A stretch of 64,000 nucleotides of DNA from the NCBI RefSeq assembly GCF_030503435.1, contig NZ_JAUKPO010000026.1:1-64000 (forward strand). Reading direction: 5' to 3'. Below, piece after piece: positions 57,303 to 63,137 of this stretch. Under the pieces are notes generated by a model. The model saw only the letters and a program-made list of their open reading frames with translations. It made no database searches and was not told where the DNA came from. Origin of the DNA: Rhodocytophaga aerolata. Its GTDB lineage: Bacteria; Bacteroidota; Bacteroidia; Cytophagales; 172606-1. The number at the start of each line of letters is the position of its first letter. Positions within the stretch are counted from its first letter, which is position 1. A program made the translations under genes and the position numbers.

Positions 57303-60300
57303 TTACTTGATTGTTACGTTCTTTAACGCATTCCTGCCGTAAAAGACCGGGAAGTACATCAACTGAGCTTTAGCCGGATTGAGGGTATAGGTGCCTGAAT
57401 ATCTGGGCAATAGATGTATAGTAAATTGATACGTACCTTTCATTAGCTGTTGGCAAAAGATACTAGTTTTATGTATAAAATACTCCCGGTGCACTTCAAA
57501 GGAGTAATTCGCTCTTTTTTCGACATAAGAGCAGCCAGCCGGAATGGGTACTTCCAGCATTATATATTCAGCATCCTGTTTCACCTCAACCTCCACTACT
57601 AACTTTACCGGCTTACCTGCTTTTACCTGTACCTGATCAGAGGACTTATTGTCTATAAATGTTTGTATGATAAAATCTTTTTCAACTGGCCCTGGCAGTG
57701 CATTCCAGTATTGCTGAAAGGCAGATACATATACCGGACGTTTACCTGACTTTTGTAGAATGAGCGGCTGACCTGGTGTAAACTCGGCCTGGTAAGGAAG
57801 ATTGCTTATGGTTGCTTGTAAATCGCCTTGCAAGGTAAGTGTAGAGGCAGGCAGCTTACCCTTTGTCAGCACATCAGGCAGGATGGTTGTTAGAATCAAC
57901 GCCGATTCATAGGTATTACGCCAGTGTCCATTGTTTTTTCTTTCCAGAAAATACCTGCGTATAGCCTGTAAGGCTTTTTCATGGCCACCGCTGGCTTTCA
58001 AAATCCGGTAAGCTATCACTGTATTGGTGATGGCATTATCTGTTAAATGCTGCCCTTCTTTTCCCGATACTTTGCTAATATACATACCGCCTGTTAAGGT
58101 AGTTTGTTTGTATTTATTAAGTGAGTCCAGACTATAAGGCAAAGCTGTTTGCTGTTGCAGTTCAATTAGCTGAAGTTGGTCATGTACACTAAGAGAAGTA
58201 TCTTTTGAAAGAGATTCCATAGATCTCGGGTAATCAACTTTGACCTCCAGTGTTTTCAACAGAAGCAGGAATCTGAGCTTATCGCTTGCTCTGGCGTTTT
58301 CCATTTCAAACATGAGGTAATCTTGTAAGGCTTGTTTATTGAACCTGACCTGATACCCAGATTTTTGTGCCATCACTAAGGCTTCTGTTACATGTGAGCT
58401 TATCCAGAGTGTAGGGGAGGAGGTTGGCCACCAGCCCCAGGTTCCATCTTTACGTTGTGCCGATTGCAATTTGTTTATAAGCTTTAAAATTTCTTGTTCT
58501 CCTTTGAATGATTCACCTAGGCTGGTTCTTATTTTTTTCTCTAGCAGTAAGGCGATCAGTTTAGAAGCTGCCTGTTCGTTACAATCATATTCATACTGCT
58601 TAATTTCTTCTATTTCGTCTAACAGCACTTGTAGTATATCTCCCTGGATATACATGTTTACCTTGCCTAAAGCCGGATCAAAATTGAGTGTAAGGGTAGT
58701 ATCTGTATCCAGATTTGCGAATACACCCTTTGTTTCCGGCGTGCCTTTAAGGAAAACAGGAATATAGCGTTTTTCACCGTCTTGTTCCCCTCCAGTTTGT
58801 GTGGAAACGTAGCTTACCTCTACTGAATCAGGAGTTGCAGCCCCGATTTGCAAGGAGTCAACCAGCGTATGCATCACCCGGCTAGTAGAAGCATTTACGG
58901 TTTTCCCATTCAAAATAAAGGCCGTAGAAAGCGACAAAGTATCAGAAGTATAGTTCATGGTTTTTCCGATAACAAGGCTGCTATCTCCTTCTACTAGAAA
59001 TCTAGGTACTGCCAGCGTACTTACTACAGGCTTAAATGCTTTGATCGTACTTTCGGAAAGTCCGGAACGTTTCCGTCCATCCATAGCTAGTACAAAGGTG
59101 CGCCAGGTAGTAACGTCATCTGGAAAAGTAATGTTAAAAACGGCTTTGCCTTGTTTGTTGGTCTTTAACCTTGGTTGCCAATACGCATAGTCGGAAAACT
59201 TATTGCGCAGGCTGGCAGCTCCGGAAAGATCTGCCGTTGTTTCAAAATTTTTGGATGATGTATCGTTTTTAGTGGATAGTGAAAATAACGAAGTAGTAAT
59301 CATAACCACTCCATTCCTTGCTCTTTCTCCATACAAGGCTTTGGCTGCTTCTCCTTTCAGTACTTGTGTTTTAGTAATATAGGCAGGATCAATGTCTGCC
59401 AGCATACCATTATAAGGTACCCCATTTATAAGAATGAGTGGCGTATTGTTGGCATCTAAGGAGGAGATACCCCTCAAATCAACAGAATCAGATATCTGTA
59501 CACCAGCTACCCGGCCTTGCAGGGGAGCTACTGTTGTGACCGCACCAGTTAAACTTACTCTCCGCTGTTCACCATACCCAACAACTACCACTTCAGATAA
59601 GTGTTTTACATCTTCCAGCAGCTGTGCGTCTATCACATCTTTGGAGCCAACGAGTATTTCATCTGTGCTAAAACCGATATAGGAGAATACTAGTACACCA
59701 TTTGAGGGGACATATAGCTGATAAAAGCCATCCATATTGGTGACAGTGCCAATCTTGGTTCCTTTGACTAATACATTTACGCCTGGTAAAGCCTCCCCAT
59801 TTGAATCTGTTACCTGCCCGGTGATTAGGTGTGTAAAGCTACCGCTAGGAGTGATGTTGTAGGTATTGTAGTAATTTTCTTTTACTTCCTGCAAGTTCTT
59901 TTTTTCCTCGGCTACACTGAATACTTCTTCCTCTAATAAGTGAGCTGCTTTCCGGCTGAACTCAGTGGGCAACTGAACCGGAAGATCCTTAATAGTGAGG
60001 TAGGTGCTGCCGCCAAATTGCACATCAAAGAAATCTGTCTCAATAAATTCGTTGAAATACAACAGCAGTACTACCTTATAGTGCCCAGGATTCAGTTGAT
60101 GAAACGTGTTGGAAGTAGCCGGATATACTTGCAAGTAGTTAGGGTCTTCTTTCCGGAACAGCAGCACTCCTTTAATGCGTTGTTCGGCACTGTCTGGCAA
60201 AGCCATCTGATGAAGAATGAGTTTACCAAATTCTTTTGTGGTCGTTGTAGCGTAGCTGTATTGGTGCTTTCTGGCTATACGGGCTTCTTTCTGCCAGGCC

Positions 60301-63137
60301 CACAAGGAATCAATCTCCGTCTGACGGTAAGGTTGCTCTGAAAAATTGGGATATATCTCCTTGTAATCTGGGTGAAGTCTGTATTTGTAAAAATTTTGCG
60401 GATTGATGCTGCGCATCTTTAGCAGTTGCTCAGAAAACTCATAGGTATATAATGGCTCGAAAGTAAAGGAGGTGGTGAAACCATCTCTCAAGATATATTG
60501 CATAGGGGAGGGCATAAATACACCAGTAATAAGCGTGTTTTTGCTGTAGTAGTTTGACAAGCGGAATGGAATAGGTTGAATAAACTCTCCTTGTTTCAGG
60601 TAAGCATTTTTACCAGGTGTATATTCCATATGCATCACATAGCGGTTAAGCAGCTGCTGTTCCTGCAGGCTATATTCTTTTTTTATTTCCTCGGTTTTCA
60701 CTTGCGGATGTACAGCGTTTGCCTCTACACTCAGTACTAGTTTACTATTCGGTTTTATGCGTACACTATCAATCGAGATAAGTTTATCTATGGTCCGTAA
60801 TTTCAGGGTATGGTAGCCGCTACTTATCCGGAAAGAGTATCTCTGTTCAACATCTGCATTCCGGTAATAGATAGGCCGGTTATCCAGGTAGATCAGGTAA
60901 ACTGGCAGCAATTGGCCATTTTGCACGACAAAGGGAGCAAATAGAGAAATGCTATCCGAAGTGGAAATATACTGTGTAAAAATTCCCTTCTCAGGATAAA
61001 GAAACTGGAAATAAGCTATACTATCCAGGCCCATCTCCGGATTCCAGTACTGCCAGTCAAGCGGGCGGTTTGCCACGGCATCCTTGGAGAATTTGTGGTC
61101 AAGGTCAAATTGGTGGAGACCTTTCCGGCTTTTGTAGGTTTTGCCCATATACGGAAGTTCAGGTGCAGAGGCGTTTTTAAATTTTCTGGTAACTGCATAG
61201 GCCGTGAGGTCTACATCCTTTGCTGGCGATCCTTCGGCATCTGTCACCAGAATATTAATCTGTGCTTGTTGACCTGGGTTTACTACCATTGGCTGATTGA
61301 CCGTAACAGTTAGCTGGTTGTGTTGAAATGGTATGCTATACTCTCTTTCCTGCACCTCACCCGACCAGATGTATTGCAGCGAGATAAAGTAATTGCCCGG
61401 TGTGGTTACTTTTGAAGCAAAATTCATTGTGTTGCCAGTGCCTCTGTCAATTGCCTGGTTTTTCCGGTATATGGTATAGTAAAACGGAAGTTTACGCGGA
61501 TTGTCCACCGATATAAAAAGGGAATCAGCGGTTCGTTGGGAGTAACATTGCAACAGGGGATCTTCTTCCCTAAGAAAAAAACTTTTTGTCAAACTTTTAA
61601 CCCGGCATTCATAATTGAAGGCATACGGGTTTAAGGCTTTCTTGAACGGAAGTTTCACCATAGTAATTTCCGGTTTTTCCTGCCCATGTAGCCAGGTAGA
61701 AAGCTGGGCATCTACTTGCTGTGGTTTGCCTGCTACCAGATATGTTGCGAGTAAACTATCTTTGTCTAGCGTAAGATTTATTTCCTGCGGAGAATGGATA
61801 TAGTGTAGTTTTAAGGTCTGGTAATGACGTTCATTGTTTGAATTAAGGAATACAGCATGAAGGCTATAGTCTAGAGATACAGCTGGAAAAATACTGTCCG
61901 GCAATACTATTTTTGTTTCTCCAACCGGATCTAGTTTCTGCTGGTAATGCCAGAGGGTATCCTTCACAAAAGCCTGTTTTCCGCTGAAATGGATTACCTG
62001 CTCAGGTGTAATAGTAAGTTGTAGGGTGGCATCTGCAACTGGTAAGTCATTTTCATCTTTTCCCTGAGCATACAGAGAAACAGGTGTGCCGCTATGGTGT
62101 GTAGTTACGTCGCTTCTGAGGTTAAAGGAGTTGGAGGTTAGTTCATAGGCTTCCAGCTCAAAAGAGCCATACATCACTGACCGGAATTTTTTTCTCTCTA
62201 GGGATATACCATACCTTTTGTCCAGGTGTAATTGCAGGCTGTCGTGCAGAACAAACTCATAAAAATAGCCGCCTTTGCGGTAAGGCTGAAGGGTGGTAAG
62301 CGTTTTACCGCCTTGTGAAGTATGGAGCACTACCTGCAAATCAGGATGAATAGGTGTTCCCCGTTTTTTTAGGATAAAAGCTTTGAATTTTACGGTATCA
62401 CCGGGCATGTACAGCGGTTTATTAAATGCCATATAGCCCCGGTATTTTGTGTCATGCTCCCTAAACTCATCCGGGTTGAATATGCCGGCTATTCTTCTAA
62501 TCCACCCTTCCGGATACCCATACCTGATCGTTTTTACCACATCTCTGATTGGTTTCCAGACCCAGTAAACAGGTTTTGTGTAAACAATTCTGTTTTTAAC
62601 TTTTCTCAAAAAAGGCTGTTTATTTTTGGTGTCAATATGATGATAAGAAGTAAAGCCCTGGTAGTGGATACTTAGCAATCCTTTCCGGCTTGTTCTTTTC
62701 TGCAAATACGCACCAGCTTTTTTATCAAAAGCAATCTTCTTATTTCGTAGATGCATTGTGGCTTCTTCAATTGGATGCCCGGAAGTATCAGTTACCAGAA
62801 TAGATAAATCCACTTTGTTATTCAGCAGTTGTACCTGAACGTTGCTTATTGGCTTGAATTCATACACCAGGTCTCCTCCCTCAGCATAGGTAAATAAATA
62901 GTGGCCATAAGGTAAGTCTCTATGATAGTCTTTGCCTGTCGGAAAAGAATCTACGGCCGTATGAAAATACGCTTGGTTAACTACATCTAAATCTTTCGTA
63001 TAGATTCTTTTTGCCTCCTCATTCCTTAGTTGATAAATGTAGGTGTAATAGCTTGTCCGGCTGCTATGCGTCAGGCTCTGCGCGGCTACCAGCAAGGGAA
63101 GAGCAAACAGGGTAAAAAGCAGTAAATGTTTTTTCAT
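57303..63137 (-). CDS. Alpha-2-macroglobulin family protein with inserted SusC-type regulatory and plug domains
   Basis: 1944 residues. Signal peptide 1-19 (LLLFTLFALPLLVAAQ), no lipobox, so periplasmic or surface. The macroglobulin MG2-type domain is at about 235-320 (FNKPLYMPGDTVKFKAFILK), with further MG domains to about 1050. Then, unexpectedly, come a carboxypeptidase-regulatory-like domain (about 1105-1180, TGQVTDSNGEALPGVNVLVK) and a TonB-receptor plug (about 1182-1280, EVVVVGYGEQRRVSLTGAV, LQGRVAGVQI, LILINGVPYNGML, KALYGERARNGVVMITT), with no beta-barrel after it. The A2M core resumes (about 1300, AVFNITFPDDVTTWRTFVLA), and the thioester motif C1519-N-E-Q1522 (YEYDCNEQAASKL) lies in the helical TED. 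Bacterial A2M proteins trap proteases by thioester attachment. Confidence 0.88.
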   Translation of the reverse strand: MKKHLLLFTLFALPLLVAAQSLTHSSRTSYYTYIYQLRNEEAKRIYTKDLDVVNQAYFHTAVDSFPTGKDYHRDLPYGHYLFTYAEGGDLVYEFKPISNVQVQLLNNKVDLSILVTDTSGHPIEEATMHLRNKKIAFDKKAGAYLQKRTSRKGLLSIHYQGFTSYHHIDTKNKQPFLRKVKNRIVYTKPVYWVWKPIRDVVKTIRYGYPEGWIRRIAGIFNPDEFREHDTKYRGYMAFNKPLYMPGDTVKFKAFILKKRGTPIHPDLQVVLHTSQGGKTLTTLQPYRKGGYFYEFVLHDSLQLHLDKRYGISLERKKFRSVMYGSFELEAYELTSNSFNLRSDVTTHHSGTPVSLYAQGKDENDLPVADATLQLTITPEQVIHFSGKQAFVKDTLWHYQQKLDPVGETKIVLPDSIFPAVSLDYSLHAVFLNSNNERHYQTLKLHYIHSPQEINLTLDKDSLLATYLVAGKPQQVDAQLSTWLHGQEKPEITMVKLPFKKALNPYAFNYECRVKSLTKSFFLREEDPLLQCYSQRTADSLFISVDNPRKLPFYYTIYRKNQAIDRGTGNTMNFASKVTTPGNYFISLQYIWSGEVQEREYSIPFQHNQLTVTVNQPMVVNPGQQAQINILVTDAEGSPAKDVDLTAYAVTRKFKNASAPELPYMGKTYKSRKGLHQFDLDHKFSKDAVANRPLDWQYWNPEMGLDSIAYFQFLYPEKGIFTQYISTSDSISLFAPFVVQNGQLLPVYLIYLDNRPIYYRNADVEQRYSFRISSGYHTLKLRTIDKLISIDSVRIKPNSKLVLSVEANAVHPQVKTEEIKKEYSLQEQQLLNRYVMHMEYTPGKNAYLKQGEFIQPIPFRLSNYYSKNTLITGVFMPSPMQYILRDGFTTSFTFEPLYTYEFSEQLLKMRSINPQNFYKYRLHPDYKEIYPNFSEQPYRQTEIDSLWAWQKEARIARKHQYSYATTTTKEFGKLILHQMALPDSAEQRIKGVLLFRKEDPNYLQVYPATSNTFHQLNPGHYKVVLLLYFNEFIETDFFDVQFGGSTYLTIKDLPVQLPTEFSRKAAHLLEEEVFSVAEEKKNLQEVKENYYNTYNITPSGSFTHLITGQVTDSNGEALPGVNVLVKGTKIGTVTNMDGFYQLYVPSNGVLVFSYIGFSTDEILVGSKDVIDAQLLEDVKHLSEVVVVGYGEQRRVSLTGAVTTVAPLQGRVAGVQISDSVDLRGISSLDANNTPLILINGVPYNGMLADIDPAYITKTQVLKGEAAKALYGERARNGVVMITTSLFSLSTKNDTSSKNFETTADLSGAASLRNKFSDYAYWQPRLKTNKQGKAVFNITFPDDVTTWRTFVLAMDGRKRSGLSESTIKAFKPVVSTLAVPRFLVEGDSSLVIGKTMNYTSDTLSLSTAFILNGKTVNASTSRVMHTLVDSLQIGAATPDSVEVSYVSTQTGGEQDGEKRYIPVFLKGTPETKGVFANLDTDTTLTLNFDPALGKVNMYIQGDILQVLLDEIEEIKQYEYDCNEQAASKLIALLLEKKIRTSLGESFKGEQEILKLINKLQSAQRKDGTWGWWPTSSPTLWISSHVTEALVMAQKSGYQVRFNKQALQDYLMFEMENARASDKLRFLLLLKTLEVKVDYPRSMESLSKDTSLSVHDQLQLIELQQQTALPYSLDSLNKYKQTTLTGGMYISKVSGKEGQHLTDNAITNTVIAYRILKASGGHEKALQAIRRYFLERKNNGHWRNTYESALILTTILPDVLTKGKLPASTLTLQGDLQATISNLPYQAEFTPGQPLILQKSGKRPVYVSAFQQYWNALPGPVEKDFIIQTFIDNKSSDQVQVKAGKPVKLVVEVEVKQDAEYIMLEVPIPAGCSYVEKRANYSFEVHREYFIHKTSIFCQQLMKGTYQFTIHLLPRYSGTYTLNPAKAQLMYFPVFYGRNALKNVTIK

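What the first reader, a model, noticed from the sequence alone, without database searches (positions are those of the whole stretch)
57303..63137. Alpha-2-macroglobulin carrying a SusC-type regulatory and plug module in its middle
One 1944-residue frame holds a signal peptide, MG domains, a carboxypeptidase-regulatory-like domain, a TonB-receptor plug (with GYGEQ, VAGVQI, INGVPY and the N-G-V-V-M-I-T-T end), and then the A2M core with an intact C-N-E-Q thioester motif. The plug lacks a beta-barrel. The plug may have been captured as an interaction or docking module, for example to a SusC barrel or to TonB-linked machinery, making a protease trap tied to the outer membrane. Automated pipelines may label such proteins TonB-dependent receptors and hide the macroglobulin. 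I do not know of a functional description of this architecture.
Basis: partly seen in the sequence, partly recalled or inferred. Interest (0 to 1): 0.78.

Follow-up and report, generated by a model that had tools for sequence, protein, structure and literature searches.

The report
Protease trap carrying TonB-binding plug
A family of bacterial protease-trap proteins (alpha-2-macroglobulins) carries, in the place where the protease-cutting 'bait' normally sits, the TonB-binding front end of a nutrient transporter without its membrane barrel, which suggests that the trap docks to the cell's TonB machinery.

Summary
Confirmed. One intact 1944-aa frame encodes an alpha-2-macroglobulin (MG domains, TED, CNEQ) with a SusC-type NTE, TonB box and shortened plug before the A2M domain, and no barrel. 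It is no artefact: a scan made with the A2M core alone kept the best 80 of 432 related stretches; NTE matches in 81 of 81 (80 loci plus window), Plug in 76. The module sits in the slot of the bait region (A2M) or anaphylatoxin (C5), inside MG6. AlphaFold2 gives a folded NTE (1.1 A from a SusC NTE crystal structure), a disordered TonB box, and a folded rear plug half on flexible linkers. NTE and plug are under purifying selection; the box is a conserved island in fast-evolving linker. No plugless SusC barrel was seen in this genome (partial scoring), so barrel docking is unlikely. Plugs occupy the same slot in two other macroglobulin classes; NTE inserts, often with a box, occur in DUF4139 proteins. 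Best reading: an unanchored periplasmic trap tied to TonB, with linkers as bait. Fold (predicted), slot and selection are shown; TonB binding and trapping are inferred. Ten library searches found no description.

The parts
57303..63137 (-). whole gene, 1944 aa, plug-bearing alpha-2-macroglobulin
63081..63137 (-). putative signal peptide (residues 1-19), no lipobox; cleavage site is my reading
   Evidence: sequence; 7 of 72 relatives with complete starts match a loose lipobox pattern
62247..62438 (-). MG2 domain (residues 234-297)
61188..61328 (-). first half of MG6 (about residues 604-650)
   Evidence: N-terminal end of the model aligned with Salmonella/E. coli A2M and A2ML1
59838..61070 (-). 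about 410 residues (690-1100), mostly well folded in the model, no Pfam family over cut-off, also inside the MG6 slot
59604..59825 (-). SusC-type NTE, CarbopepD_reg_2 (residues 1105-1178)
   Evidence: VIA Z 15.4, rmsd 1.1 over 80 residues to 9hfj
59574..59600 (-). TonB box L-S-E-V-V-V-V-G-Y (residues 1180-1188)
   Evidence: same place and nearly the same letters as the published Bt1763 TonB box; conserved; predicted disordered
59490..59567 (-). linker and eroded first half of plug (residues 1191-1216), candidate bait segment
   Evidence: pLDDT under 50; dN/dS 0.47
59286..59489 (-). folded rear half of plug (residues 1217-1284)
58929..59186 (-). PF00207 A2M domain, second half of MG6 and start of MG7 (residues 1318-1403)
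57858..58640 (-). thioester domain (about residues 1500-1760)
   Evidence: model aligned with the C5 TE domain, Z 19.8
58572..58583 (-). thioester motif CNEQ (residues 1519-1522)
57348..57653 (-). bMG10, C-terminal MG domain (residues 1829-1930)

Best explanation
The gene encodes a soluble periplasmic thioester alpha-2-macroglobulin whose bait slot has been taken over by the periplasmic front end of a SusC transporter: NTE, TonB box and plug. The free TonB box (LSEVVVVGYG) binds the C-terminal domain of TonB, and the NTE and plug help or give specificity, so that a trap without its own membrane anchor is held at the Ton complex, under the transporters through which large molecules enter. The flexible linkers around the plug act as bait: a protease that cuts there untethers the MG6 insert, the macroglobulin changes shape and the CNEQ thioester captures the protease. 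Shown: domain content, position in the bait slot, conserved TonB box, purifying selection; and, by prediction, folded NTE and rear plug on disordered linkers and a native-like arrangement. Inferred: periplasmic location, TonB binding, cleavage in the linkers, trapping.
For: Architecture: NTE 81 of 81, Plug 76 of 81, in loci found with a query that excluded the module (best 80 of 432 kept). Slot: the conserved core begins at human A2M residue 726, A2ML1 705, C5 764; structure alignment places the insert inside MG6 of Salmonella A2M, A2ML1 and C5, and residues 1314-1944 run on with A2M, C3, C4 and C5, best with native forms. TonB box: Bt1763's box VDEVVV follows the same kind of NTE, its mutants grow on levan as poorly as a SusD deletion, and it is flexible outside the NTE fold (PMC7782687 passages); here it is predicted disordered, with L, E, V, V, V, G, Y at 0.89-0.93 in 87 sequences against 0.2-0.6 at neighbours other than the following G. 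Selection: dN/dS NTE 0.19, box stretch 0.21, plug 0.18, linker 0.47, N-terminal MGs 0.13; the box window set beforehand from Bt1763 has pN/pS 0.28, and the windows with the lowest pN of residues 1160-1217 all overlap it. Precedent: a barrel-less NTE+plug fragment of M. xanthus Oar binds TonB C-terminal domains in two-hybrid tests (PMC6434023 passages). Three members without the folded plug half keep a box: L143 (EVIVVGYG, inside the plug clade), L052 and L053 (ESVVVT, acid shifted). An unrelated family, DUF4139, carries an NTE insert: 14 of 30 loci, 8 of these with LxEV[VA][VI].
Against: No interaction or activity data. Among all 604 windows of residues 690-1300 the box is not exceptional: 361 evolve more slowly. 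A core value of 0.09 used positions picked after the fact. Nine of 87 fail a box pattern: L085 has an extra G, L052, L053, L129, L140 and L141 have the acid shifted or replaced, and L101, L115 and L123 are degenerate. TED-less MG+plug proteins such as L152 cannot trap covalently, so the slot plug need not serve trapping. 10 of 28 assessable class-wide relatives have neither NTE nor plug. No Pfam bait-region domain (PF07703) is recognised in the window protein. pTM of the model is low (0.49), so the packing of the module is unknown. A few relatives may be lipoproteins after all (7 of 72 loose lipobox matches, L116 and L131 the most plausible).
Confidence: 0.43

Rival explanations
1. Integrated decoy: the bait slot copies the exposed TonB-box/plug segment of the cell's own SusC transporters, so that a protease which attacks transporters cuts the copy instead and is trapped. 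TonB binding is not needed.
For: The module lies in the bait slot. Sister macroglobulin classes often have low-complexity bait-like sequence there, and short SusC-like pieces occur in that slot of the paralogous 2100-aa class: 3 of 22 tested at p of about 0.01 or less (L056, L060, L200) against 0 of 22 upstream control segments at p 0.05; L059, left out of these 22, has NTE, box and start of plug. The linker evolves fast.
Against: The folded plug half is under purifying selection and would make poor bait. TED-less proteins with the same plug cannot trap covalently. I know of no protease specific for this segment. In the 1500-aa class the slots do not exceed the control segments (2 of 9 against 3 of 9 at p 0.05), and the 1850-aa class has 0 of 9.
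Confidence: 0.2
2. Structural filler: the module is an inherited insertion that keeps its fold because a misfolded insert would harm the protein, without a function of its own.
For: Slot content is very labile across the superfamily: 28 assessable class-wide loci have NTE+plug 5, NTE only 13 (some weak), neither 10; the tree needs at least 5 plug changes and 12 NTE changes. The folded plug half is absent in L052, L053 and L143.
Against: Conserved TonB box inside a disordered linker, dN/dS of about 0.2 for NTE and plug, and the module in unrelated DUF4139 proteins.
Confidence: 0.22
3. The plug docks in trans into a SusC-like outer-membrane barrel (one of the first reader's examples).
For: Plug motifs such as RG (0.94, 0.98) and the glycine of DG (0.98) remain conserved; that the RG arginine contacts the barrel in transporters is recalled, not tested.
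Against: No plugless SusC among 52 over-cut-off genes of the own genome, one starting at profile position 84 but with plug (56 of 133 candidates scored). SusC-like flanking genes in only 7 of 80 loci, at no fixed place. The front half of the plug is shortened and predicted disordered.
Confidence: 0.07
4. Assembly or annotation artefact joining two genes.
For: None found.
Against: The same order of domains in one frame in orthologues of many genera.
Confidence: 0.01

Closest known systems
Type I bacterial alpha-2-macroglobulins (E. coli ECAM/YfhM, Salmonella A2M)
   Same: MG domains, TED with CxEQ, C-terminal MG, insert within the same MG domain; model aligns over about 608 residues with native forms, Z 21-22
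   Different: [quoted passage not shown] here no lipobox, no pbpC among the three neighbouring window genes scanned, no PF07703, and the slot holds about 650 residues including NTE, TonB box and plug
MagD, type II A2M of Pseudomonas aeruginosa
   Same: periplasmic A2M without lipobox that relies on another protein (MagB) for its association (PMC5764988 passages)
   Different: MagD has no thioester and sits in a six-gene operon; here the thioester motif is intact and no conserved neighbourhood was seen
SusC/RagA TonB-linked transporters
   Same: NTE, TonB box, plug in the same order
   Different: no beta-barrel; plug shortened; module lies in the middle of a macroglobulin
Complement C3/C5
   Same: a folded domain (anaphylatoxin; recalled) in the same MG6 slot
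   Different: an unrelated plug module here, and no release by cleavage is shown
Oar of Myxococcus xanthus
   Same: NTE plus plug with TonB box; the fragment without barrel binds TonB in two-hybrid tests (PMC6434023 passages)
   Different: Oar is a full transporter used for protease secretion

Membership tests
thioester alpha-2-macroglobulin | MG domains and A2M core | tested here: met
   MG2, PF00207, bMG10 over cut-off; structure alignment
thioester alpha-2-macroglobulin | CxEQ in a helical thioester domain | tested here: met
   CNEQ 1519-1522; predicted TED aligned with C3, C4, C5 and A2M; Pfam TED model only E 0.32
thioester alpha-2-macroglobulin | bait region | tested here: inconclusive
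   slot present, with disordered linkers, but PF07703 not found
thioester alpha-2-macroglobulin | protease trapping | not testable with these tools
   needs protein
SusC/RagA TonB-dependent transporter | NTE (PF13715) | tested here: met
SusC/RagA TonB-dependent transporter | TonB box after the NTE | tested here: met
   sequence match to the Bt1763 box
SusC/RagA TonB-dependent transporter | plug | tested here: met
   PF07715 E 2.2e-9 on the fragment, shortened; not listed when the whole protein is scanned
SusC/RagA TonB-dependent transporter | beta-barrel, whole-family score | tested here: not met
   TIGR04056 190.8 of 368.25 bits, positions 3-204 of 981 only
TonB-binding protein | binding to a TonB C-terminal domain | not testable with these tools
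   precedent only

The most novel reading that the evidence does not exclude
NTE-TonB box-plug is a portable TonB-addressing module that Bacteroidota graft onto periplasmic proteins that are not transporters (thioester macroglobulins, TED-less MG proteins, DUF4139 proteins). The Ton system then anchors, or even pulls on, these proteins; in the macroglobulin a pull or a cut in the bait slot would be the switch that springs the trap.
Probability: 0.2. Interest if true: 0.86.

Novelty: new variant of a known kind. Interest (0 to 1): 0.66.

Why it matters
If right, the TonB system serves something other than outer-membrane transport, and a bacterial relative of complement has filled its bait slot with a docking or decoy module, as complement has an anaphylatoxin domain there. 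It gives a direct handle on two open points: what the NTE of SusC proteins is for (called unknown in PMC7782687, passages read), and how bacterial macroglobulins without membrane anchor are placed. It also warns that SusC profile hits can hide macroglobulins.

Tried and rejected
Assembly artefact: rejected by orthologues. Conserved neighbourhood: the two largest clusters of flanking proteins cover 16 of 80 loci each; clusters were read by eye, not annotated. Rechecked for SusC partners: one mixed cluster holds SusC-like proteins at 7 loci (L067, L072, L077, L085, L093, L128, L137) at no fixed place, plus pieces or copies of the A2M gene; a strict box-plus-plug pattern finds 3 of 80. Vacant SusC barrel: none seen (partial scoring). 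Decaying relic: weakened by dN/dS of about 0.2. Post hoc box core (pN/pS 0.09) set aside in favour of the beforehand window (0.28). C143 734-aa frame first taken as a barrel-less plug protein: it is a SusC gene broken by one stop. Snippet test in the 1500-aa class: no excess over control segments. Foldseek and VIA on the whole model listed no plug structure among the rows shown; the plug was not folded on its own, so that is no evidence. Papers: searches returned nothing; one search listed four papers, none on this by title and abstract start; (macroglobulin with SusC) was swamped by words beginning 'susc', 15 of 4,367 listed; some searches were on SusC/NTE or bacterial A2M and gave the four papers of which I saw passages (PMC7782687, PMC6434023, PMC4498604, PMC5764988).

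Full report
What is there. The minus-strand frame at 57303-63137 is open for 1944 codons. Pfam gives MG2, CarbopepD_reg_2, A2M (PF00207) and bMG10 over cut-off, and NCBIfam a SusC (TIGR04056) match to 1105-1283 only. The plug is listed by Pfam only when the fragment is scanned alone. The thioester motif is CNEQ.

Host. The window lies on contig 121 of a 9.07 Mb genome of 202 contigs. Xanthocytophaga (Rhodocytophagaceae, Cytophagales) is in the same family: the 652,675-base contig of G003, same family, has the length of the named Xanthocytophaga contig. This is an inference.

Family. In 59 genomes of the relatives set, 10 including the own have a close orthologue (E of 1e-80 or better; one is a fragment), while the one same-genus genome has none that close (best 4.7e-10). 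A scan of genome contigs with the A2M core alone (residues 1290 on, so that the module could not steer it) found 432 stretches encoding a relative and kept the best 80: Pontibacter, Rufibacter, Mucilaginibacter, Pedobacter, Chitinophaga, Saprospiraceae, Bacteroidales and others. Two of the 80 are MAGs titled otherwise (Thalassovita L098, Clostridiales L113); the rest bear Bacteroidota names. In the window plus these 80, NTE matches in 81 of 81, A2M in 81 and Plug in 76 at E 0.001. In phylum-wide sampling the close family is sparse: 5 of 296 genomes at E 1e-60; in class-wide sampling 25 of 295 at 1e-25; at most four candidates per genome were scored in both.

Position. Against PDB sequences the core profile starts at human A2M 726, A2ML1 705 and C5 764. 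These are just at or after the end of the bait region or C5a; those boundaries are recalled. The AlphaFold2 model of residues 590-1420 (75 sequences, mean pLDDT 79.6, pTM 0.49) has two ends that align together with Salmonella A2M (Z 15.0, 171 residues), A2ML1 and C5. About 650 residues are inserted between: among them a 410-residue block without Pfam family over cut-off, then the NTE, TonB box and plug. The model of residues 745-1944 (mean pLDDT 81.9, pTM 0.64) aligns from residue 1314 on with native C4 (Z 27.3), A2M (26.7) and C3 (26.4), and less well with activated A2M forms (Z 18-20, rmsd 15-20 A); for the E. coli protein the gap is small in Z (21.2 native, 20.1 activated) but large in rmsd (4.8 against 18.7).

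The module. The NTE matches the crystal structure of a SusC NTE, 9hfj (Z 15.4, 1.1 A, 80 residues). The TonB box and the eroded front half of the plug (model 592-630) and the linker 698-721 have pLDDT under 50; the rear half of the plug is folded with pLDDT about 80. In Bt1763 the TonB box VDEVVV follows the NTE, box mutants grow on levan as poorly as a SusD deletion, and NMR shows the box flexible and outside the NTE fold (PMC7782687, passages). So conservation of EVVV here is not explained by the NTE fold.

Selection. Eleven independent pairs (70-97% identity) give dN/dS of 0.19 for NTE, 0.21 for the box stretch, 0.18 for plug, 0.47 for the linker 1191-1216, 0.22 for the second linker, 0.13 for the N-terminal MGs and 0.07-0.10 for the core. 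The box defined beforehand from Bt1763 has pN 0.128 (pN/pS 0.28); windows on either side reach 0.3-0.37. Among 604 windows of residues 690-1300, 361 evolve more slowly, so the box stands out only within its disordered surroundings.

The slot elsewhere. Of 29 class-wide loci 28 could be assessed: NTE+plug 5, NTE only 13 (some weak), neither 10; two of the 28 (L179, L186) look like pieces of one gene. L216 and L217, a different class of about 1567 aa, carry a box and full plug in the same slot, while L208-L214 and L218 of that class have low-complexity sequence there and L215 a plug remnant. TED-less proteins such as L152 (MG2, plug, then a weak match to the start of PF00207, then the end) carry a plug too; L221 keeps a weak plug match and L220 none. 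In the 2100-aa class, 3 of 22 slots hold SusC-like pieces at p of about 0.01 or less, against 0 of 22 control segments at p 0.05; the 1850-aa class has 0 of 9, and the 1500-aa class no excess over controls. A quick tree of 70 rows groups 21 NTE+plug members with L143 (SH-aLRT 83); L168 and L052 fall outside; at least 5 plug and 12 NTE changes. Many inner branches are weak, so origins are not settled, and whether L052 lost its plug or never had it whole is open.

The module outside macroglobulins. L149 of the own genome is a DUF4139 protein with an NTE, LNEVVITGYG and LAGKIAGV inside its DUF4139 match. Of 30 related loci fetched, chosen by likeness to L149 and so biased to carriers, 14 have the NTE; by eye, 8 of these read LxEV[VA][VI], and 5 also LxGxx[AP]G.

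Mechanism. The module is a known TonB-binding front end: a barrel-less NTE+plug fragment of Oar binds TonB C-terminal domains in two-hybrid tests (PMC6434023, passages). The window protein has no lipobox, and only 7 of 72 relatives match a loose pattern, of which L116 and L131 could be real; it thus differs from ECAM, and like MagD may need a partner to be placed (PMC5764988, passages). I therefore favour TonB docking with the flexible linkers as bait. In E. coli A2M, cutting the bait untethers a disordered stretch that binds the CTMG domain and prevents its protective contact with the TED (PMC4498604, passages). The decoy and filler readings remain open. Docking into a SusC barrel is unlikely.

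Verdict. A real, conserved, and as far as I could search undescribed architecture; a new variant of a known kind. The placement is well supported, the use is inferred.

Noticed in passing
window:56701-57255, minus strand: Peptidase M28 matching only profile positions 54-186 of 193: it seems to lack its N-terminal part and lies 47 bases downstream of the A2M stop.
   Followed up: partly
window:59838-61070 (residues 690-1100): About 410 mostly well-folded residues without Pfam family over cut-off, also inside the MG6 slot of this family.
   Followed up: no
L149:1315-3204 minus strand (own genome C77): DUF4139 protein with NTE, TonB box and a plug remnant inserted; 14 of 30 related loci have the NTE.
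   Followed up: partly
L152:402-2882 plus strand (own genome C22): 826-aa MG2+plug protein without thioester domain; a family with several members per genome in some relatives.
   Followed up: partly
L148:549-2447 minus strand (own genome C123): YfbK-like VWA protein with an N-terminal NTE followed by LQEVVTI, half a TonB box.
   Followed up: no
L216, L217: 1567-aa macroglobulins of another class with a TonB box and full plug in the same slot.
   Followed up: partly
L060 and L200 slots: Short SusC-like pieces (LSGKVAGVRIRG, MNEVVVTGMG; SVNIRGVGS) in otherwise low-complexity bait-like sequence.
   Followed up: partly
L136, L084, L085, L098: L136 has a second A2M-like frame of 1916 aa directly upstream of the first; in L084, L085 and L098 the start of the A2M gene lies in a separate frame, so these copies are broken or misassembled.
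   Followed up: no
window:55509-56006, minus strand; window:63516-63998, plus strand: A bacterial globin gene; and the start of a DUF3857-like protein divergent from the A2M gene (Pfam score below its cut-off).
   Followed up: no
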